A stretch of DNA of 11,477 nt from Clostridia bacterium. GTDB lineage: Bacteria > Bacillota_A > Clostridia > Oscillospirales > CAG-272. The stretch spans positions 1 through 11,477 of the forward strand of contig JAGBZZ010000045.1 of NCBI GenBank assembly GCA_017652965.1. The letters run 5' to 3'. The stretch's first letter is position 1, and every line of letters begins with the position of its first letter. This document shows positions 3,985-9,726 of this stretch, piece by piece. A model generated the notes under the pieces. It searched no databases. It was not told the DNA's origin and saw only the letters and a list, made by a program, of their open reading frames with translations. The position numbers and the translations under genes were made by a program.

Positions 3985-4806
3985 ATGATATACCAACCGC
4001 TGAACACGGGCGGCACAGACTATTCCGCCGGGATCATTACCGGCTTTTCCTCTTACCCCTTGCACCGTCACGTGGCGGTAGAGCTGATGTACGTGATGAC
4101 GGGCGAGCTTTCCATCCTGCTGGATGGGGAGAGCCACACGGCGCACGAGGGGGATCTTATCTTCGTTGGCAGCAGGATCGCACACTCTGTCACCGCGTGC
4201 CGTGAGGGCACCGTCTTTCTTCTGATCGAATTCGGCCCTACCTTTGCCCGCAACGGCTTTGAGGGGATCGCCGCCCTTGCCCCGCGGGAGCCGGTGCGGC
4301 GTGCGGATACGCATCCCGAGATGGGGGTGATCCTGCCGCTTCTTTTGGAGATCGTGCAGGAGCGGTACACCCCGACCGACGAATCCGAGCTGATCGTGGT
4401 GGGCAACATTTCCAAGACGGTGGCCTATCTCTGCCGCGCCCTTACCCCAAAGGAGAGCACCCCCCCGACGGGGCGCAGAATGTCGGCAGAGCAGGTGCTT
4501 GATTTTATTACCTATCATTATATGGAGGAGCTGAGCATCAAGGAAGCGGCCGACCGCATGGGCTACAGTGTCTGCAACTTCTGTCGGATCGTGAAAAAGG
4601 AGTTTGGCAAAAGCTTTCACGTCCTTTTGAACGAGGCACGGATCAAGCGTGCCTGCGCCCTGCTTTACGATACCGATCTTCCGATCTGCCAGATCGCACG
4701 CGAGGTCGGCTTTGCCGAGGCAAAAAGCTTTGGGCGCGTGTTCAAAAGCATGAAGGGCTGTACCCCCAGCGAGTACGTGGTAAGGCACAGGCAAGGCGGG
4801 GAATAG
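3985..4806 (+). CDS. AraC-family transcriptional regulator with N-terminal cupin domain
   Basis: A 273-residue DNA-binding regulator. The N-terminal sensor (about 1-100) shows a textbook cupin motif 1: H27-x-H29-x3-E33-x6-G40. A second block follows around EGDLIFVGSRIAH (55-67). The C-terminal AraC/XylS domain (about 168-268) has two helix-turn-helix units, SIKEAADRMGYSVCNFCRIVKKEFG and LPICQIAREVGFAEAKSFGRVFKSMKGCTPSEY, with the typical GF-x6-F-x3-F-K-x6-P signature. Start: the ATG at 3985 follows a G-rich GGGGG at 3975-3979. In-frame upstream codons would run back through the promoter (3905-3933), so a longer protein is unlikely. It is divergent from the aminotransferase operon and probably controls it in response to a sugar. 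Array A and a terminator lie in its 3' region. Confidence 0.92.
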   Translation: MIYQPLNTGGTDYSAGIITGFSSYPLHRHVAVELMYVMTGELSILLDGESHTAHEGDLIFVGSRIAHSVTACREGTVFLLIEFGPTFARNGFEGIAALAPREPVRRADTHPEMGVILPLLLEIVQERYTPTDESELIVVGNISKTVAYLCRALTPKESTPPTGRRMSAEQVLDFITYHYMEELSIKEAADRMGYSVCNFCRIVKKEFGKSFHVLLNEARIKRACALLYDTDLPICQIAREVGFAEAKSFGRVFKSMKGCTPSEYVVRHRQGGE

Positions 4807-4816
4807 CAGGATGCGC

Positions 4817-4904
4817 CCGCCTGCGGCGGAATGATGTTAGCCTTTGGCTAAATGATGCTGTGTGCGTTGCACGCAAATGATGTTGTGTCCTGCGGACACA
4901 AATG
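4817..4904 (+). repeat. Array A: four mini-hairpins joined by AATGATG linkers
   Basis: Four short stems follow one another with almost no unpaired sequence except the linker. They are CCGCC-TGC-GGCGG (4817-4829), TTAGCC-TTT-GGCTAA (4837-4851), a 7-bp stem with loop GTT (4859-4875), and TGTGTCC-TGC-GGACACA (4884-4900). AATGATG linkers start at 4830, 4851 and 4876, and a final AATGA at 4901 runs into the A-tract of the terminator. Spacing between linker starts is 21, 25 and 25 bases. The array lies in the 3' untranslated region of the AraC gene. Related copies are at 9401-9480 (same orientation) and 6721-6815 (inverted). Confidence 0.85.
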
Positions 4905-4939
4905 AAAAATCCCGAAAGCAAGGGCTTTCGGGATTTTTT
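4905..4939. terminator. Bidirectional terminator between the AraC gene and the GH-D gene
   Basis: A 15-bp perfect stem (4905-4919 with 4924-4938) has an AAGG loop, ending in TTTTTT on the right and A-rich (T-rich on the other strand) on the left. It serves the rightward AraC transcript and the leftward GH-D transcript, whose stop is at 5036. The stretch 4940-5035 shows nothing further. Confidence 0.88.
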
Positions 4940-5035
4940 GCTTTGTGCAAAACGTTGCCGCGCCTGTCGGCCGTGAGGGATGCGTGGCCAATACCGTTTT
5001 GAAAGGGCAAGCATTTTACTCGCGCCCCTTGAAAA

Positions 5036-6649
5036 TCACTTTACGGCAAAGGATCCGGTTCCGTTTTTCGGATACCAATTGTAGGTTACGGGCTTTCCGT
5101 TCAAAAGCCATCTTTCGGGACATACGTTTTCCATCCAATCAAGGGGGATCAGCTCGTCCTCTTGAACCGAATTTGCTTTGTAAGCGATCTTAAGGTCTGC
5201 TTTTTCCGTTTCACATATCACGTCGGGATCGGGGGATACGAACATGGGCGCGCCGCTGTGCGCAACAGCGTCAAGCCACTGTCTGTTGAGCTGCCAATCG
5301 ATAAGCCCCGTGATTCCGATGCAATCCACGTCGCTTTCGTAAAAGGCCTTGTGATGCAGCATTCGAAACGCCAGCGTGTTGATGCCGTATTTTCGCACCT
5401 TTTCCCAGTCCTTGCCGCTGGTATCGTCACCCGTGCGGTTAAGATGGATCATACCCGCCGCCAAATGACCGATGACGTTGCACCCCAAAACAACGGCTTT
5501 CCCTTTCGCCGCCTCGTATATGGCCTTGTTAAGAGCGATAAATATTTCCGCCGTGGTTTTACTGCGATCGTAAAAGTGCCAGCCGTCAGCGGCAAATTCG
5601 GCCTTTCTTTCAAAGCCCCAGTACCCGAGTGCGTCAAAAGTAGAAAAATCGTGCTTTATAAGCTTGTAGCCCCAGTCGCAAAGCATGCTTACGGTGTTCT
5701 TTATATAAGCAAGCGTATCGGGATGAGAAGGATCGAGGTTTTTGCCGTCGTTTGCACATCTTTGCGGCGCCCCCTCCGCAAATACCGTGTAGCGGACGTC
5801 GCGAAGCGGTCGTATCCATATTCCGGGATAGACCCCTCTGGCGGTGATCTCCGAGGCAAGCTCCTGCATGTTATAAAACCTGCCTTCTCTGAATTCCCCC
5901 CAAGGAGCGCTGAGGTGGTTCTTTTCCCAGCCCGCATCGATAACCATATACGGCTTTTCGGTATTTCCCCGGCATAGATCCGCAAGCAATTCTGCATCTC
6001 TTATGACGGCGCTGTGGGATATTTGACCGTAGGCATAGTACCAATCGTTGTTTCCGTATATCTTGTGATCTGCCTTCAGCGGGGTATCGCAAAGCAAGGA
6101 ATAATACTTTTTCAAAGCAGAAAAAGCCGATACGTCTCGGTATTCACCGAAAAGGATCTCGCATACGCCAAGCGTTCTGCCGTTCAGAACGACCCCTTCG
6201 CCTCCGCATCTCACGTCAAGCCATAAGGTGATTCCGTTTGCATCGTATTGCCAAAAGCACATAGCGGCAGGACAGGTCTTGACACCAAAGCACTCGGTAA
6301 ACCTCCCTTGTGTGTCCGCAACCCGGTCAGAGCCGTTGGAGACAGCGCAGACCCAAGGCATATAACGGTCGGGCACAATGCCGCGCCACTCTATGTCTCC
6401 GTAGCCTCTTTCCCAAGCGTCGCCGTAAACCTTTATGATGTCGGTTCGCTTTTCCTTTTCGGTGAAATTCCACCGCACCTTTAAATATTTTACGGCAGTT
6501 TCTTTGGCGAATAGCCTTATGCAAAGCGTTTTGGCATCTGTCGTGCAAATATCGCTTTTAACGTCGTCGAATGCGGCGGTATGCTCGCTTGTTTCGAAAG
6601 CTCTTGATTCACAAAAAACCGAGAAATAATCAGGGTAGCGTAATTTCAT
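5036..6649 (-). CDS. Clan GH-D glycoside hydrolase (alpha-galactosidase-like, GH36/GH27 relative)
   Basis: A 537-residue protein. The N-terminal third (about 1-190) looks like a beta-rich supersandwich domain. A (beta/alpha)8 barrel follows from about 198, opening with GNNDWYYAYG, then MVIDAGWE (235-242), YPGIWIRPL (274-282), the nucleophile motif YKLIKHDF with D334, and NRTGDDTSG (404-412), in which D408 or D409 fits the acid/base. This order is typical of alpha-galactosidase-type retaining enzymes. No signal peptide is visible, so it is probably cytoplasmic. Start: the ATG at 6647-6649 has a GAGAGG site 9 bases upstream and a near-consensus promoter at 6685-6713. It stands alone, with the bidirectional terminator at 4905-4939 downstream. 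The family is secure at clan level; substrate and exact CAZy family are not. Confidence 0.87.
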   Translation of the reverse strand: MKLRYPDYFSVFCESRAFETSEHTAAFDDVKSDICTTDAKTLCIRLFAKETAVKYLKVRWNFTEKEKRTDIIKVYGDAWERGYGDIEWRGIVPDRYMPWVCAVSNGSDRVADTQGRFTECFGVKTCPAAMCFWQYDANGITLWLDVRCGGEGVVLNGRTLGVCEILFGEYRDVSAFSALKKYYSLLCDTPLKADHKIYGNNDWYYAYGQISHSAVIRDAELLADLCRGNTEKPYMVIDAGWEKNHLSAPWGEFREGRFYNMQELASEITARGVYPGIWIRPLRDVRYTVFAEGAPQRCANDGKNLDPSHPDTLAYIKNTVSMLCDWGYKLIKHDFSTFDALGYWGFERKAEFAADGWHFYDRSKTTAEIFIALNKAIYEAAKGKAVVLGCNVIGHLAAGMIHLNRTGDDTSGKDWEKVRKYGINTLAFRMLHHKAFYESDVDCIGITGLIDWQLNRQWLDAVAHSGAPMFVSPDPDVICETEKADLKIAYKANSVQEDELIPLDWMENVCPERWLLNGKPVTYNWYPKNGTGSFAVK

Positions 6650-6684
6650 AAATAAAAGCCTCTCTATCGGTGGTTTCTGCGTTC

Positions 6685-6713
6685 AGTATAGCATAAAAGG
6701 GGCGGGGTGTCAA
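6685..6713 (-). promoter_or_regulatory. Promoter of the GH-D glycosidase gene
   Basis: Read leftward: TTGACA (6713-6708, perfect), a 17-bp spacer and TATACT (6690-6685), preceded by TG-C as an extended -10. It is the strongest promoter of the protein-coding genes here. The last hairpin of array B ends 7 bases upstream of the -35, at 6721. Confidence 0.85.
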
Positions 6714-6720
6714 TCTATTT

Positions 6721-6815
6721 GCGCGGAGCGCCACATCATTGGGCGAAGCCCACATCATTGCGAAGCACATCATTTGCGACTTGTCGCAACATCGTTTTGT
6801 GTCCGCCTGCGGCGG
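6721..6815 (-). repeat. Array B: mini-hairpins joined by AATGATG linkers, inverted orientation
   Basis: The top strand shows CATCATT linkers at 6734, 6753 and 6768 and a variant CATCGTT at 6790, so the AATGATG sense is leftward. Stems are GCGC-GGA-GCGC (6721-6731), TGGGC-GAA-GCCCA (6740-6752), TGC-GAA-GCA (6759-6767), TTGCGAC-TT-GTCGCAA (6774-6789) and CCGCC-TGC-GGCGG (6803-6815). The last stem matches the first stem of array A base for base. Spacing is shorter (19, 15 and 22 bases) and loops in the linker sense are mostly TTC, so this is a different subtype. It fills the gap between two divergent promoters. Confidence 0.8.
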
Positions 6816-6875
6816 AATTCAAGTGGCGCGAGGGAAGAATGTGCCCTGCCCGAAGGCGTTTTTTCGCATTCCCTC

Positions 6876-6904
6876 TTGCAAAAGGGGAGGATCTGTGTTA
6901 TATC
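6876..6904 (+). promoter_or_regulatory. Probable promoter of the peptidase C26-type gene
   Basis: TTGCAA (6876-6881), a 17-bp spacer and TATATC (6899-6904), with TG-T immediately before it as an extended -10. The predicted transcript would start near 6911 and include the GGAGGG ribosome site at 6923-6928. The -10 match is modest. Confidence 0.5.
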
Positions 6905-6935
6905 TATGGTAGAATTCGTTTTGGAGGGCACCGTT

Positions 6936-7670
6936 ATGCTGCTTGCGACCACCCTGCGTTATATGGATCTTCAAAAGAACACTCGCTTTGATCAGCGCTT
7001 CTTTACCACAAAGGAATACGTCACGATGGCCGAATGCTACGGCTTCGGTCTTCTTGCCGTGATGAACGAGGGGGGCGTGGCGGCGGCCGTCTCTGCCTGT
7101 GACGGGCTCCTCCTCCCCGGCTCTTCCACGCCCCATCCCAAGGAGTTTTATGAGGGTGAGCCGCCCGAGCGGCCGATCGTGTGGGATGAGTACCCCCTCG
7201 ACTCTGCCCTTGTCCGCGCCTTTTTTGAGGCGGGCAAGCCCATCCTCGGCATCTGCGGGGGGGAGCAGACCATCAACGTCGTCTTTGGCGGCACGCTCTG
7301 CCGTGTGCCCGACCTTGCGGTGCATATGGATATGACCCTGCGCAGCCATCCCATCAACATCGTGGAGGGGAGCTTCATCCACGAGGTCTTCGGTGCTACG
7401 CGCTACACGGTCAACAGCGGGCACAGCTGGCGCGTTGCCCGCCTTGCCCCGAACTTTACGGTATCCGCCACTACCGACGACGGGGTGGTGGAGGCCATCG
7501 AATGGCGTGAGCGGCACGTCTTTGGTGTGCAGTGGCATCCCGAGAAGGTGTTTGCCCCCGAGGAGGAGAAGGCAGACGGCATCCTCCTTGCCACACCCAT
7601 CGAGCGGCGGATGTTTGAGCTGTTCCTATCCGAGTGCGAGGCCTGCCGCCAAGCGGCGGGGGATCGGTAA
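6936..7670 (+). CDS. Gamma-glutamyl-gamma-aminobutyrate hydrolase-like (peptidase C26) protein
   Basis: A 244-residue class I glutamine amidotransferase fold of the PuuD/peptidase C26 group, which cleaves gamma-glutamyl amide bonds. Catalytic residues are visible: nucleophile C107 in GICGGEQTINV, and H201 and E203 in FGVQWHPE. DGLLLPGSSTPHP (56-68) matches the family's D-G-hydrophobic-PGG-D loop in altered form. The usual GICRGxQ has Gly for Arg. Start: the ATG at 6936 has GGAGGG 7 bases upstream. The in-frame ATG at 6906 lies at the predicted promoter and would give a less typical N-terminus. It is a single gene with its own promoter and terminator, flanked by unrelated glycosidases. The true substrate could be another gamma-glutamyl compound, and a link to putrescine use is not shown here because no other puu genes are present. 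Confidence 0.88.
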   Translation: MLLATTLRYMDLQKNTRFDQRFFTTKEYVTMAECYGFGLLAVMNEGGVAAAVSACDGLLLPGSSTPHPKEFYEGEPPERPIVWDEYPLDSALVRAFFEAGKPILGICGGEQTINVVFGGTLCRVPDLAVHMDMTLRSHPINIVEGSFIHEVFGATRYTVNSGHSWRVARLAPNFTVSATTDDGVVEAIEWRERHVFGVQWHPEKVFAPEEEKADGILLATPIERRMFELFLSECEACRQAAGDR

Positions 7671-7687
7671 GAGAGGGCCGGTTTTAG

Positions 7688-7734
7688 AAAAAGAGGACAG
7701 AGAAAGCCTTCAGGGCCGGTCTCTGTCCTTTTTT
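7688..7734 (+). terminator. Terminator of the peptidase C26-type gene
   Basis: GGACAGAGA (7695-7703) pairs with TCTCTGTCC (7720-7728) across a 16-base loop, followed by TTTTTT (7729-7734). Upstream A-rich bases extend the stem and give a partial T-tract on the other strand, so weak leftward termination is possible too. Confidence 0.8.
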
Positions 7735-7764
7735 GTTTGCTCTTCGGTCGTTCTTTTTCCGCCT

Positions 7765-7878
7765 TCAGCCCTCGGGCAGCACCTCGCGGAAGGTCCCGTC
7801 ACCCTCGCCAACGTGGTCACCGTCAATGGGAAAGAGAAAGCGCGTTGCGGACGCGGCATGAAAATAATCCTTTTCCAT
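7765..7878 (-). pseudogene. Truncated 37-codon remnant of a second gene in the GH39-like operon
   Basis: The ATG at 7876-7878 has a GAGGA ribosome site 8 bases upstream and lies 44 bases past the GH39-like stop, as a normal operon partner would. It encodes 37 residues (MEKDYFHAASATRFLFPIDG at the start) and stops at TGA 7765-7767. The RFLFPIDGD segment looks like the beginning of a larger protein. I have only an unverified impression of similar N-termini in carbohydrate-related proteins of gut Clostridia. Directly beyond it lies the terminator of the convergent gene, so the 3' part appears to have been deleted. The alternative is a genuine 37-residue small protein. Confidence 0.45.
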
Positions 7879-7922
7879 GATATAGTCCTCTTTCAAAAAG
7901 CGAAAATAAGCAGGGCGGCTTT

Positions 7923-9272
7923 TCAGTCCTTGACCAGCTTGAGAAGGAGCGAGGTATAGAGCGGCATCGCTACCGTAACGGTTGGCGACAACGGGTCGAT
8001 CGGCTCTCGGCACCAAAGATCGGCATTATAGGTTTCATCCAGCCGATAGATCTCAAGGTGTGCCCCCTTTGGAATATGCTTCATTTCGACCGTCACGGTC
8101 TTCTCGGGCAATTGGTCGTCATCGCTATAATAGGTGAGCATCACGGCATGACCGTCGCCCGTAGCGGCGGCGGCGTAGAGATCCTCGTCATCCGACGAAA
8201 CGGCGACCGCCGTGCCAAGGGTGTAAAGCCGATTGAACATAGCGAAGGGGTAATAGCCCTTCAGCCTGTCACAGACCATATCGGTCGAGAACAGGCAGTT
8301 CCAAGCGCTCGGGCGGGCGTCATAGTACATCAGCATATCGACGGGCTCATACTGGCTCATCAGCATCGTGGCGGCGACAAAGGCGGCGCCCTTCAGGCTC
8401 TTGATCGTGCGGAGCGACTGCACAAAGCCGTCGCCGTCCCATGCCTTTATGTAGTTCCACTCGTTGAGAATGCTTTCTGCCCCCTCGTGGCCGTGGCGCT
8501 TCATAAAGTCCTGTGCGAGGCGGATCGCATCCCGCATCTTGGCAATATCGGCACCGTAGCAATGCCAGGAGAAGAAGTCGGGGCGCAGGTCGCCAAGGGC
8601 CCGAAAGTAGCCGTCCACCCACGTGCCGCGGTGAAAGAGGGTGTTGACGGCAGGGCCGCCGATCTTCAGATGCGGAAACCTCTCCTTAAGATGGGTGAAT
8701 GCCACGCGGAAGAATTCGTAGAACTCGGCCGCAGTACCGCCCCAGGAGCATTTCTTCTCGGGGGCAGCATCGTCCTCCGCCGAGCTTGCCTCGTTCCAGA
8801 TCTCCCAGTATTCGATTCCCATATGCATACCGTCTGCCCAGCCCTCGTTATAGTGCTTTATGATATGCTCACAGACGATCGCCCACTTCCCGAAGTCCTT
8901 CGGCGGGAGGGTGTTGTATTTCTTGACCTCATGCTCAATGCGCGTGCCGAGACGGTAAAAGGGCTTGACCCCTGCCGCCTCATGGACCTTCATATAATGG
9001 TCGGTGCAGGCAAAATCGTAGGAGGCAGGATCGGTAGGGTCGGCATCGAAGTCGGGGAAGATAAAGTTGACATCCACCGTATGATTGCCGCCGTACGCGG
9101 CGCAGAAGGAGGCGTCATGGTTGCGGGCGTAAGGAATCCCCGCCTCGATAAAGGCATCAAGGTTTGAGATGCGCTGGTGAACGCTGAATTTATGGACAGG
9201 GCCGTTATTGACGGCGTGCATCGGCTTGATTTTGCCGAGCCGCTTGGAAAAATCGACGGTGATCGTACTCAT
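7923..9272 (-). CDS. Clan GH-A glycoside hydrolase, GH39-like (beta-xylosidase type)
   Basis: A 449-residue protein. A (beta/alpha)8 barrel covers about residues 15-350, with the acid/base E161 in IEYWEIWNEASS and the nucleophile E271 in ESILNEWNY, the two-glutamate layout of clan GH-A. PDFFSWHCYG (231-240) matches the GH39 strand-6 region. A C-terminal beta domain (about 350-449) ends in a typical LLKLVKD strand. Start: the ATG at 9270-9272 has AGGGGAG just upstream and a promoter at 9306-9334. The frame stays open to 9620, but that extension would pass through array C, its terminator and tRNA-Trp and cannot be coding. No signal peptide is visible. Probable substrates are xylosides or related pentosides, but GH-A families outside GH39 are possible. 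A truncated ORF follows at 7765-7878. Confidence 0.87.
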   Translation of the reverse strand: MSTITVDFSKRLGKIKPMHAVNNGPVHKFSVHQRISNLDAFIEAGIPYARNHDASFCAAYGGNHTVDVNFIFPDFDADPTDPASYDFACTDHYMKVHEAAGVKPFYRLGTRIEHEVKKYNTLPPKDFGKWAIVCEHIIKHYNEGWADGMHMGIEYWEIWNEASSAEDDAAPEKKCSWGGTAAEFYEFFRVAFTHLKERFPHLKIGGPAVNTLFHRGTWVDGYFRALGDLRPDFFSWHCYGADIAKMRDAIRLAQDFMKRHGHEGAESILNEWNYIKAWDGDGFVQSLRTIKSLKGAAFVAATMLMSQYEPVDMLMYYDARPSAWNCLFSTDMVCDRLKGYYPFAMFNRLYTLGTAVAVSSDDEDLYAAAATGDGHAVMLTYYSDDDQLPEKTVTVEMKHIPKGAHLEIYRLDETYNADLWCREPIDPLSPTVTVAMPLYTSLLLKLVKD

Positions 9273-9305
9273 GATACTCCCCTCTCTCTTCTTACTATCC
9301 CCCTT

Positions 9306-9334
9306 ATCGTAGCATACCTCCTCCCAAAAATCAA
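9306..9334 (-). promoter_or_regulatory. Promoter of the GH39-like gene
   Basis: Read leftward: TTGATT (9334-9329), a 17-bp spacer and TACGAT (9311-9306), with TG-C before it as an extended -10. It lies about 35 bases upstream of the ATG and places the real gene start well short of the open frame that continues to 9620. Confidence 0.6.
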
Positions 9335-9400
9335 TACCCGCGGAAAAATTCCGAGCATTACATGGCAAGCAACGCCCATACAACGCAAAAAAGAGAAGGC

Positions 9401-9480
9401 GGCGGAATGATGTTGAGCCAAGGCTCAAATGATGTTGCGTGCGTTGCACGCAAATGATGTTGTGCCTTGCGGCACAAATG
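9401..9480 (+). repeat. Array C: AATGATG-linked mini-hairpins, sister copy of array A
   Basis: Same unit order as array A: a GGCGG half-stem (9401-9405, left arm lost), TTGAGC-CAAG-GCTCAA (9413-9428), TTGCGTGC-GTT-GCACGCAA (9435-9453) and TTGTGCC-TTGC-GGCACAA (9460-9477). Linkers start at 9406, 9428 and 9453, and a final AATGA at 9477 runs into the A-tract of a terminator. No rightward gene precedes it. It lies between the GH39-like promoter and the tRNA-Trp terminator, so unlike array A it is not obviously part of an mRNA. Confidence 0.85.
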
Positions 9481-9512
9481 AAAAAATCCAAGCCGATTGG
9501 CTTGGATTTTTT
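9481..9512. terminator. Bidirectional terminator abutting tRNA-Trp
   Basis: A perfect 14-bp stem (9481-9494 with 9499-9512) has a GATT loop and runs of A and T at its ends. On the leftward strand it begins at the last base of the tRNA CCA end and gives TTTTTT, so it terminates tRNA-Trp. On the rightward strand it also has a T-run, after array C. Confidence 0.88.
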
Positions 9513-9587
9513 GGCAGGGGCAGAAGGACTTGAACCCACGACACCCAGTTTTGGAGACTGGTGTTCTACCGACTGAACTATACCCCT
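9512..9587 (-). tRNA. tRNA-Trp (anticodon CCA)
   Basis: A 76-base cloverleaf with encoded CCA. Acceptor AGGGGTA pairs with TGCCCCT. The D-stem is GTTC/GAAC. The anticodon arm CCAGT-CTCCAAA-ACTGG gives anticodon CCA, read as Trp. The T-loop is TTCAAGT and the discriminator is G73. The T-stem has a T-T mismatch and a G-T pair (GTGGG with CCTTC), so it is weaker than usual but the rest is regular. It has its own strong promoter and a terminator directly at its 3' end, so it is a single-gene unit divergent from asnS. Confidence 0.97.
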
Positions 9588-9605
9588 ATGTCTTGCGACT
9601 ACAGT

Positions 9606-9634
9606 ATTATACCACGCCATTTCGGGAATTGCAA
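9606..9634 (-). promoter_or_regulatory. Promoter of tRNA-Trp
   Basis: Read leftward: TTGCAA (9634-9629), a 17-bp spacer and a perfect TATAAT (9611-9606). The predicted start is about 10 bases before the mature tRNA 5' end. Confidence 0.85.
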
Positions 9635-9697
9635 GAGCTTTTTGAAAAAAATTTATAATATCTCGCCTTTTTGGACAGAATTTTATTACCTTACCCC

Positions 9698-9726
9698 TTG
9701 AAAAGCTATATTTTTAATGCTATAAT
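9698..9726 (+). promoter_or_regulatory. Promoter of asnS
   Basis: TTGAAA (9698-9703), a 17-bp spacer and a perfect TATAAT (9721-9726) preceded by TG-C (extended -10). The transcript would start near 9733, leaving a leader of about 37 bases. That is too short for the T-box riboswitch that often controls tRNA synthetase genes in Firmicutes. Confidence 0.85.

What the first reader, a model, noticed from the sequence alone, without database searches (positions are those of the whole stretch)
4817..4939. Tandem mini-hairpins with an invariant AATGATG linker, ending at a terminator (array A)
Seen directly: four adjacent stems of 5-7 bp with 3-base loops, joined only by AATGATG-type linkers, running into the A-tract of a 15-bp terminator. 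The stems differ in sequence but the linker is constant, the reverse of a CRISPR or a simple tandem repeat. I know of no named element with this layout; translated forms of similar repeats may appear as spurious ORFs in gut Clostridia, but I cannot verify that here. It could be an RNA chaperone or protein-binding platform, a single-stranded DNA substrate, or a non-autonomous mobile repeat.
Basis: partly seen in the sequence, partly recalled or inferred. Interest (0 to 1): 0.75.

Follow-up and report, generated by a model that had tools for sequence, protein, structure and literature searches.

The report
Hairpin arrays of a tRNA-linked element
The small run of hairpins is a decayed half of a repeated DNA element of gut Clostridia that often sits right behind tRNA genes and is matched, by its spacer sequence, to a family of small proteins of unknown function; it may be a new kind of mobile element.

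Summary
Array A is real and not alone. The window holds three related arrays (A 4817-4903, B 6725-6817, C 9401-9479): two left halves and one right half of a compound element that is complete in many gut Clostridia genomes: terminator / about 4 hairpins / centre / 4-5 hairpins / promoter / gene. Stems change in compensating pairs; spacers barely change. Arrays of this design lie just upstream of PF05635 four-helix-bundle ('23S rRNA IVP') genes, a family of unknown function (49 of 75 upstream, 6 of 74 downstream; independent set 24 of 40, 2 of 40; shuffles 0 of 345), and protein subfamilies have their own spacers. In 52 of 117 cases a tRNA or tmRNA gene lies directly upstream, always in the same direction; the terminator follows the element family, not the tRNA; the same kind of tRNA gene is empty or holds another family in related genomes. 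Rfam's Gut-1 'RNA' is a sister array with spacer GTGAAAT. My reading: a new kind of cargo-carrying mobile element, of which the window keeps relics. Mobility, binding and the recombinase are inferred, not shown.

The parts
4905..4938 (-). Terminator (15-bp stem, T-tract on both strands) at the end of gene 5036-6649(-); in relatives this position is the element's own left end
   Evidence: relatives
4814..4903 (-). Array A: left half of an A1-type element, four hairpins with ATGATG spacers (CATCAT on the minus strand), ending inside the centre hairpin (CCGCC TGC GGCGG, 4817-4829)
5036..6649 (-). 537-aa gene between right half B and left half A; no match in Pfam or NCBIfam
6685..6713 (-). Promoter-like TTGACA-17-TATACT directly after right half B, pointing to gene 5036-6649 (11 of 12 consensus letters; 4 such sites found in 4600-9700, 3.3 expected by chance)
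6725..6817 (-). Array B: right half of the same element type (centre hairpin, CGATG, hairpins, three exact AATGATG spacers on the minus strand)
9390..9479 (-). Array C: left half of an A1-type element, broken off in the centre hairpin
9481..9513 (-). Terminator AAAAAATCC...GGATTTTTT starting at the CCA end of tRNA-Trp and running into array C
9512..9587 (-). tRNA-Trp (CCA anticodon), the site behind which array C lies

Best explanation
Array A is the decayed left half of a hairpin-array element (type A1, spacer ATGATG) of gut Clostridia. The complete unit reads: element-borne terminator, left half (about 4 hairpins), centre, right half (about 4-5 hairpins, mirror orientation), promoter, then a PF05635 four-helix-bundle (4HB) gene and/or a small variable gene. 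SHOWN by sequence comparison: the layout; stem covariation; spacer type going with 4HB subfamily; position directly behind the CCA end of tRNA/tmRNA genes in one direction in 52 of 117 cases; occupied and empty states of the same kind of tRNA gene in related genomes; a change to unrelated sequence right after the 4HB stop codon. INFERRED: the 4HB binds the array, perhaps as a ring-shaped oligomer with one subunit per spacer; the array works as folded single-stranded DNA (in this family it lies between a terminator and a promoter, so it is probably little transcribed); the complex steers insertion or recombination at tRNA 3' ends, the strand-exchange enzyme being a host or resident one; copies without a 4HB gene, such as those in the window, are non-autonomous relics.
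For: Layout in relatives. Covariation. Upstream association with PF05635: set 1 49 of 75 against 6 of 74 downstream, Fisher 1e-13; set 2, genomes not chosen by arrays, 24 of 40 against 2 of 40, Fisher 1.3e-7; dinucleotide shuffles 0 of 225 and 0 of 120. Spacer follows protein identity: r 0.405 over 1041 pairs, largest of 2000 permutations 0.153. tRNA/tmRNA upstream in 52 of 117, none on the opposite strand, 16 isotypes plus tmRNA. Terminator matches element family and not tRNA. Occupied/empty sites. tRNA 3' remnants ending at the junction in 4 of 23 non-first units. Same cargo behind different tRNAs or different element types.
Against: No movement seen; no recombinase found with the element. 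26 of 75 (set 1) and 16 of 40 (set 2) 4HB genes score below my threshold for an array. 65 of 117 have no tRNA upstream. ATATCG-type units have neither tRNA nor promoter. Orthology of the compared tRNA sites rests on only 23-84 nt of upstream flank. Non-array 4HB genes also show ATGA overlap (8 of 44 against 28 of 71). ATGATG arrays occur in genomes where I saw no A1-type 4HB (for example G008, G013), which may be MAG incompleteness. The window's own genome is not held, so a cognate 4HB there is untested.
Confidence: 0.65

Rival explanations
1. Integron-like cassette traffic: a resident tyrosine recombinase (phage, ICE or Xer type) uses the tRNA 3' end as attachment site; arrays are folded recombination sites or boundary marks and the 4HB is only an accessory protein or autoregulator.
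For: tRNA 3' remnants of 16-45 nt at unit junctions; partial tRNA-Asn copy before a second unit in L329; cargo change at a fixed point; tandem units behind tRNA-Gln in L232; PF00589 proteins in 14 of 15 genomes.
Against: No such gene near arrays by a motif scan of 120 loci and the window; among 30 PF00589 loci only 2 have arrays nearby; one conserved family is Xer-like, one per genome, the other goes with different inverted repeats; does not explain why spacer follows the 4HB.
Confidence: 0.25
2. Not mobile by itself: arrays are 4HB operators or transcription/supercoiling boundaries between units, copied around by ordinary homologous recombination between near-identical repeats.
For: Right halves abut promoters (19 of 23 in the ATGATG family); left halves abut terminators; ATATCG-type units sit in operons.
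Against: Precise left end at tRNA CCA ends for 16 isotypes and tmRNA; presence/absence at the same kind of tRNA gene; one direction only.
Confidence: 0.15
3. A noncoding RNA family (extended Gut-1) whose hairpins and linkers bind protein as RNA.
For: Rfam RF01706, listed as a certain RNA in PMC2864571 (passages); tandem G.A mismatches on one strand; ATATCG, CTTCAC and other types can lie in the 5' leader.
Against: Mirror halves carry opposite-strand linkers and Gut-1 matches fall on both strands of one element; terminator before and promoter after the array in the ATGATG and GTGAAAT types.
Confidence: 0.1
4. Chance hairpins or a simple tandem repeat.
For: Some pattern hits in other phyla and nearly all in viral contigs are plain repeats or chance.
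Against: (reversed-pattern control 0-3 per genome).
Confidence: 0.01

Closest known systems
Gut-1 RNA, Rfam RF01706 (Weinberg et al. 2010, PMC2864571; passages seen)
   Same: Variable hairpins with a constant linker (GUGAAAU); found behind tRNA genes in the same loci as ATGATG arrays, with the same terminator-array-centre-array-promoter layout
   Different: Window arrays have another spacer and do not reach the Gut-1 model; described there as a noncoding RNA found only in human gut
PF05635 / TIGR02436, 23S rRNA intervening-sequence protein (S23p)
   Same: Partner protein of the arrays belongs here; best solved relative 2RLD, E 4.5e-22
   Different: Classical IVS lie inside 23S rRNA; these units lie behind tRNA or protein genes. 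Papers seen in passages call the protein's function unknown (PMC4990558, PMC11270868)
REP/REPIN sequences with RAYT transposases (PMC3733652, passages)
   Same: Palindromes in mirror pairs, protein gene with its own repeat type, scattered non-autonomous copies
   Different: No GTAG or CGTC tag; partner is a 4HB, and Y1 transposases are over cut-off in only 7 of 23 genomes
Integron gene cassettes with attC sites (recalled)
   Same: Small variable genes, folded sites with conserved pairing and little conserved sequence, tandem units
   Different: No integron integrase seen near arrays; each unit has its own terminator and often promoter; sits behind tRNA genes
tRNA-targeting integrative elements (recalled)
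   Same: Junction at the tRNA 3' end, some 3' duplications
   Different: Many isotypes for one element family; no recombinase in the unit; element about 250-300 nt from tRNA to the 4HB start
Diversity-generating retroelements with Avd (PMC10053308, passages)
   Same: Avd resembles PF05635
   Different: Reverse transcriptase (PF00078) in only 5 of 23 genomes

Membership tests
Gut-1 RNA (RF01706) | Match to the covariance model at or above 50 bits | tested here: not met
   Window scanned at E up to 0.5, no Gut-1 match; met by other loci
Gut-1 RNA (RF01706) | Constant linker between variable hairpins | tested here: met
   Same layout, different linker
Gut-1 RNA (RF01706) | Expressed as RNA | not testable with these tools
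   No RNA-seq at hand
23S rRNA intervening sequence | Encodes a PF05635 protein | tested here: inconclusive
   Met by related units; window ORFs tested show none and its genome is not held
23S rRNA intervening sequence | Lies inside a 23S rRNA gene | tested here: not met
   No rRNA match in the window; units lie behind tRNA or protein genes
REP/RAYT | GTAG or CGTC tag at the palindrome foot | tested here: not met
   Spacers are ATGATG and others
REP/RAYT | Associated Y1 transposase | tested here: not met
   Over cut-off in 7 of 23 genomes; none adjacent to arrays was looked for beyond that
Integron | Integron-type tyrosine integrase next to the array | tested here: not met
   Motif scan of 120 loci and window empty; PF00589 loci rarely near arrays. 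Integron-specific models not run
Diversity-generating retroelement | Reverse transcriptase | tested here: not met
   PF00078 in 5 of 23 genomes
CRISPR | Constant repeats with variable spacers | tested here: not met
   The variable parts are self-complementary stems

The most novel reading that the evidence does not exclude
A new class of cargo-carrying mobile element: a ring-shaped four-helix-bundle protein reads a row of spacers between single-strand hairpins as its own recognition code and steers the unit to the CCA end of almost any tRNA gene, without a transposase or reverse transcriptase of its own. Spacer code and protein diversify together, so several families share one genome; Gut-1 'RNA' is one of them.
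Probability: 0.4. Interest if true: 0.93.

Novelty: categorically new. Interest (0 to 1): 0.85.

Why it matters
It would give PF05635, a widespread protein family with no known function, a nucleic-acid partner and a testable role; turn an orphan Rfam RNA family into part of a DNA element; and expose a system that shuffles small genes behind tRNA genes in uncultured gut Clostridia. The matched spacer-protein pairs make the proposed code directly testable by swapping partners.

Tried and rejected
Rejected or set aside: an element-borne tyrosine recombinase, a reverse transcriptase, a Y1 transposase. My first idea that the 4HB genes were mere cargo was dropped. Close relatives of the A1-type 4HB in IMG/VR: 16 pattern stretches, none confirmed.

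Led nowhere or weak: viral pattern scan (120 stretches, one with palindromic units); GH39 search for a close relative of the window's host (99 of 246 genomes match, best 61% identity); structure prediction and fold search not run; the C-terminal motif count used a wrong expression and is void; the hairpin register was wrong for inner hairpins and was redone; one search ended with an error after its first count (tRNA 3' repeat of 13 nt or more downstream in 3 of 50, control 0 of 50). One opaque translation was out of frame and unused.

Left and right halves were picked by fixed expressions (51 and 32), not exhaustively. Of 84 PF05635 matches in set 1, 78 were fetched and the 6 weakest or shortest dropped; of 77 in set 2, the 40 best-scoring were fetched. 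L370 (its highest-scoring array belongs to the preceding element) and L378 (too short) were left out of the Mantel test, which used set 1 only. Of 44 4HB genes below the array threshold, 14 have a tRNA upstream and several show weaker arrays by eye. Of 15 Bacteroidota PF05635 matches only 4 were scored; none had an array. The 4HB tree has few columns for its rows.

Full report
WHAT IS THERE. Array A consists of four hairpins joined by ATGATG spacers beside a 15-bp terminator. AATGATG is enriched in the window (9 against 1.88 expected, 0 of 200 shuffles reach 9). Two more arrays lie in the window: C (9401-9489), 83% identical to A over 63 nt, and B (6725-6817), in mirror orientation and sharing the centre-hairpin sequence with A. 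Read on the minus strand, C follows tRNA-Trp and its terminator, B stands before a promoter-like site and gene 5036-6649, and A follows that gene's terminator. Neighbouring genes are ordinary: AraC-type regulator, C26 peptidase, GH39-like, AsnRS, aminotransferase, GH3.

THE COMPLETE ELEMENT. Several of the other groups show plain tandem repeats instead of hairpins. In 26 genomes reached from these loci the two-spacer pattern gives 3 to 71 matches each; the reversed-pattern control gives 0 to 3. Many loci hold a complete compound element: terminator AAAAAATCC-stem-GGATTTTTT, left half with CATCAT spacers, centre hairpin, right half with ATGATG spacers, ACGGA, then promoter and RBS (TATAAT...AGAAAGGCGGTG) before a gene. 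I extracted 51 left halves (A and C among them) and 32 right halves by fixed expressions and aligned 48 and 32. Covariation: left hairpin 2 pairs in 316 of 323 cells (232 after shuffling arms), left hairpin 3 in 271 of 321 (206); right hairpins 192 of 198 (155), 127 of 136 (87), 174 of 181 (119). 22 of 49 third hairpins keep a tandem G.A/A.G mismatch on the terminator-to-gene strand, which hints that this strand is the folded one (inference).

SISTER FAMILIES. Rfam's Gut-1 RNA matched three loci where a second type of array sits: spacer GTGAAAT in L127 and L158, GTTATAT/GTGATAT in L179, with the same terminator-array-centre-array layout before a 4HB gene. In L127 and L179 it lies behind a tRNA gene called by ARAGORN; in L158 behind a tRNA-like 3' end at the contig edge. 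Gut-1 matches fall on both strands of single elements. The window itself does not match Gut-1. In the 2010 paper (passages) Gut-1 is listed as a noncoding RNA found only in human gut; a text search for RF01706 returned that paper alone.

THE PROTEIN PARTNER. Genes behind the arrays were often four-helix-bundle proteins. PF05635 occurs in 23 of 26 array genomes (84 matches) and in 34 of 59 genomes of one family (two of these 59 were array genomes), and in 0 of 14 control genomes. I scored, without choosing a spacer beforehand, the best six-base word recurring between hairpins in 420 nt up- and downstream. Four or more copies: set 1 upstream 49 of 75, downstream 6 of 74; set 2 (40 genes from genomes not chosen by arrays) upstream 24 of 40, downstream 2 of 40; shuffled upstream 0 of 225 and 0 of 120. 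The spacer differs between 4HB subfamilies: ATGATG, GTGAAAT, ATATCGC, ATATCGA, ATATCAT, ACTTCAC, ATTCCAT and others. Spacer similarity follows protein identity: 47 proteins, 1041 between-genome pairs, r 0.405, best of 2000 permutations 0.153; identical spacers in 39% of 138 pairs at 60% identity or more, 4% of 576 at 45-60%, 0 of 327 below. Halves most often hold 4 spacers on the left (31 of 59) and 4 or 5 on the right (48 of 59). Basal 4HB genes (L301-L309, L322) score no array.

THE SITE. A tRNA or tmRNA ends within 460 nt upstream of 52 of 117 4HB genes (38 of 73 with a scored array, 14 of 44 without), never on the opposite strand. The terminator begins right at the CCA and resembles that of other members of the same element family behind other tRNAs; five families behind tRNA-Trp have five different terminators. 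With 750- and 745-base probes ending in a tRNA, tRNA-Arg(ACG) carries an ATGATG element in G009 and a Gut-1-type element in G023, and no array in G008 and G013; tRNA-Val(GAC) carries three families in G008, G009 and G024, and no array directly behind it in G011 and G013. Outside the tRNA the matching flank is only 23-84 nt, so strict orthology is not proven, and some sites (G010, G013 tRNA-Val) show other tRNA 3' duplications. Among 47 A1 left halves with enough flank, 24 directly follow an intact tRNA. Of the other 23, 5 gave a tRNA match, 4 of them ending at the junction; in the control window 2 of 20 matched, both from L161 and L196, whose intact or partial tRNA lies there. Window array C is one of the tRNA cases.

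THE CARGO. Similarity ends at the 4HB stop codon. In 28 of 71 array units the stop is the TGA of an ATGA, against 8 of 44 without array; in 23 of 58 array units with a downstream ORF of 40 aa or more the longest ORF starts at that overlap. Of ten cargo or accessory proteins tested, four have a Pfam match above cut-off: DUF4279, MazG, DUF6678, TMEM164. Among 55 cargo proteins compared, one lipoprotein-like protein (96% identical over 204 aa) sits behind tRNA-Arg in G009 and tRNA-Val in G008, and another is shared by a GTGAAAT-type and two CTTCAC-type units. Other A1 elements drive small genes directly and stand in tandem behind tRNA-Gln in L232.

HOW IT MAY WORK. The Xanthomonas homologue of the 4HB is a homopentameric ring (PMC4990558, passage). 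I infer that such a ring holds the spacers while hairpins project. In the ATGATG family a promoter follows the last spacer in 19 of 23 units (38 of 73 over all families), and a T-tract directly precedes the first exact spacer in 13 of 23 (25 of 73), by crude tests. So for this family a DNA form is likelier than RNA. ATATCG-type units lack tRNA and promoter and may live inside operons. The cutting and joining enzyme is unknown: RT in 5 of 23 genomes, Y1 over cut-off in 7 of 23, tyrosine recombinases in 14 of 15 but rarely near arrays.

LIMITS AND NOVELTY. Two unverified human-faecal phage records carry 4HB genes with arrays visible by eye, one behind a tRNA-like sequence, although my exact-word score gave only 2 for each, so a viral vehicle is possible. 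I found no description of this pairing in searches of an open-access library; subscription papers and preprints were not searched.

Noticed in passing
L254, L266 (also L252, L261, L262): A 280-295-aa tyrosine recombinase family (47-62% identical) followed by ACATAA...TTATGT-type inverted repeats; in L254 and L266 these flank a stretch before a signal-peptide gene, which looks like an invertible promoter.
   Followed up: no
L478 2501-2842: A PF05635-type gene lies between hsdS and hsdR of a type I restriction system in Monoglobus pectinilyticus, without an array.
   Followed up: partly
L479, L480: Two human-faecal phage-labelled records (Mexico) carry a 4HB gene with hairpin arrays before it.
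   Followed up: partly
L218 3920-4420: A third array family stands in four tandem copies of about 125 bp in one MAG (SIG378), whose genome has the most pattern matches, 71.
   Followed up: no
L458, L468, L477: Other tRNA 3' ends with their terminator are duplicated a few hundred bases downstream, as left by ordinary tRNA-targeting elements.
   Followed up: no
L224 downstream of 1214: A right half is followed directly by a tRNA-Gln gene in place of a protein gene.
   Followed up: no
L238 6165-6235: A hairpin array with ATGATG spacers in a cultured strain of Faecalibacterium prausnitzii.
   Followed up: no
window 6774-7670 and 7923-9620: The longest ORFs start inside arrays B and C; the true starts of the C26 peptidase and GH39-like genes are probably further inside.
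   Followed up: no
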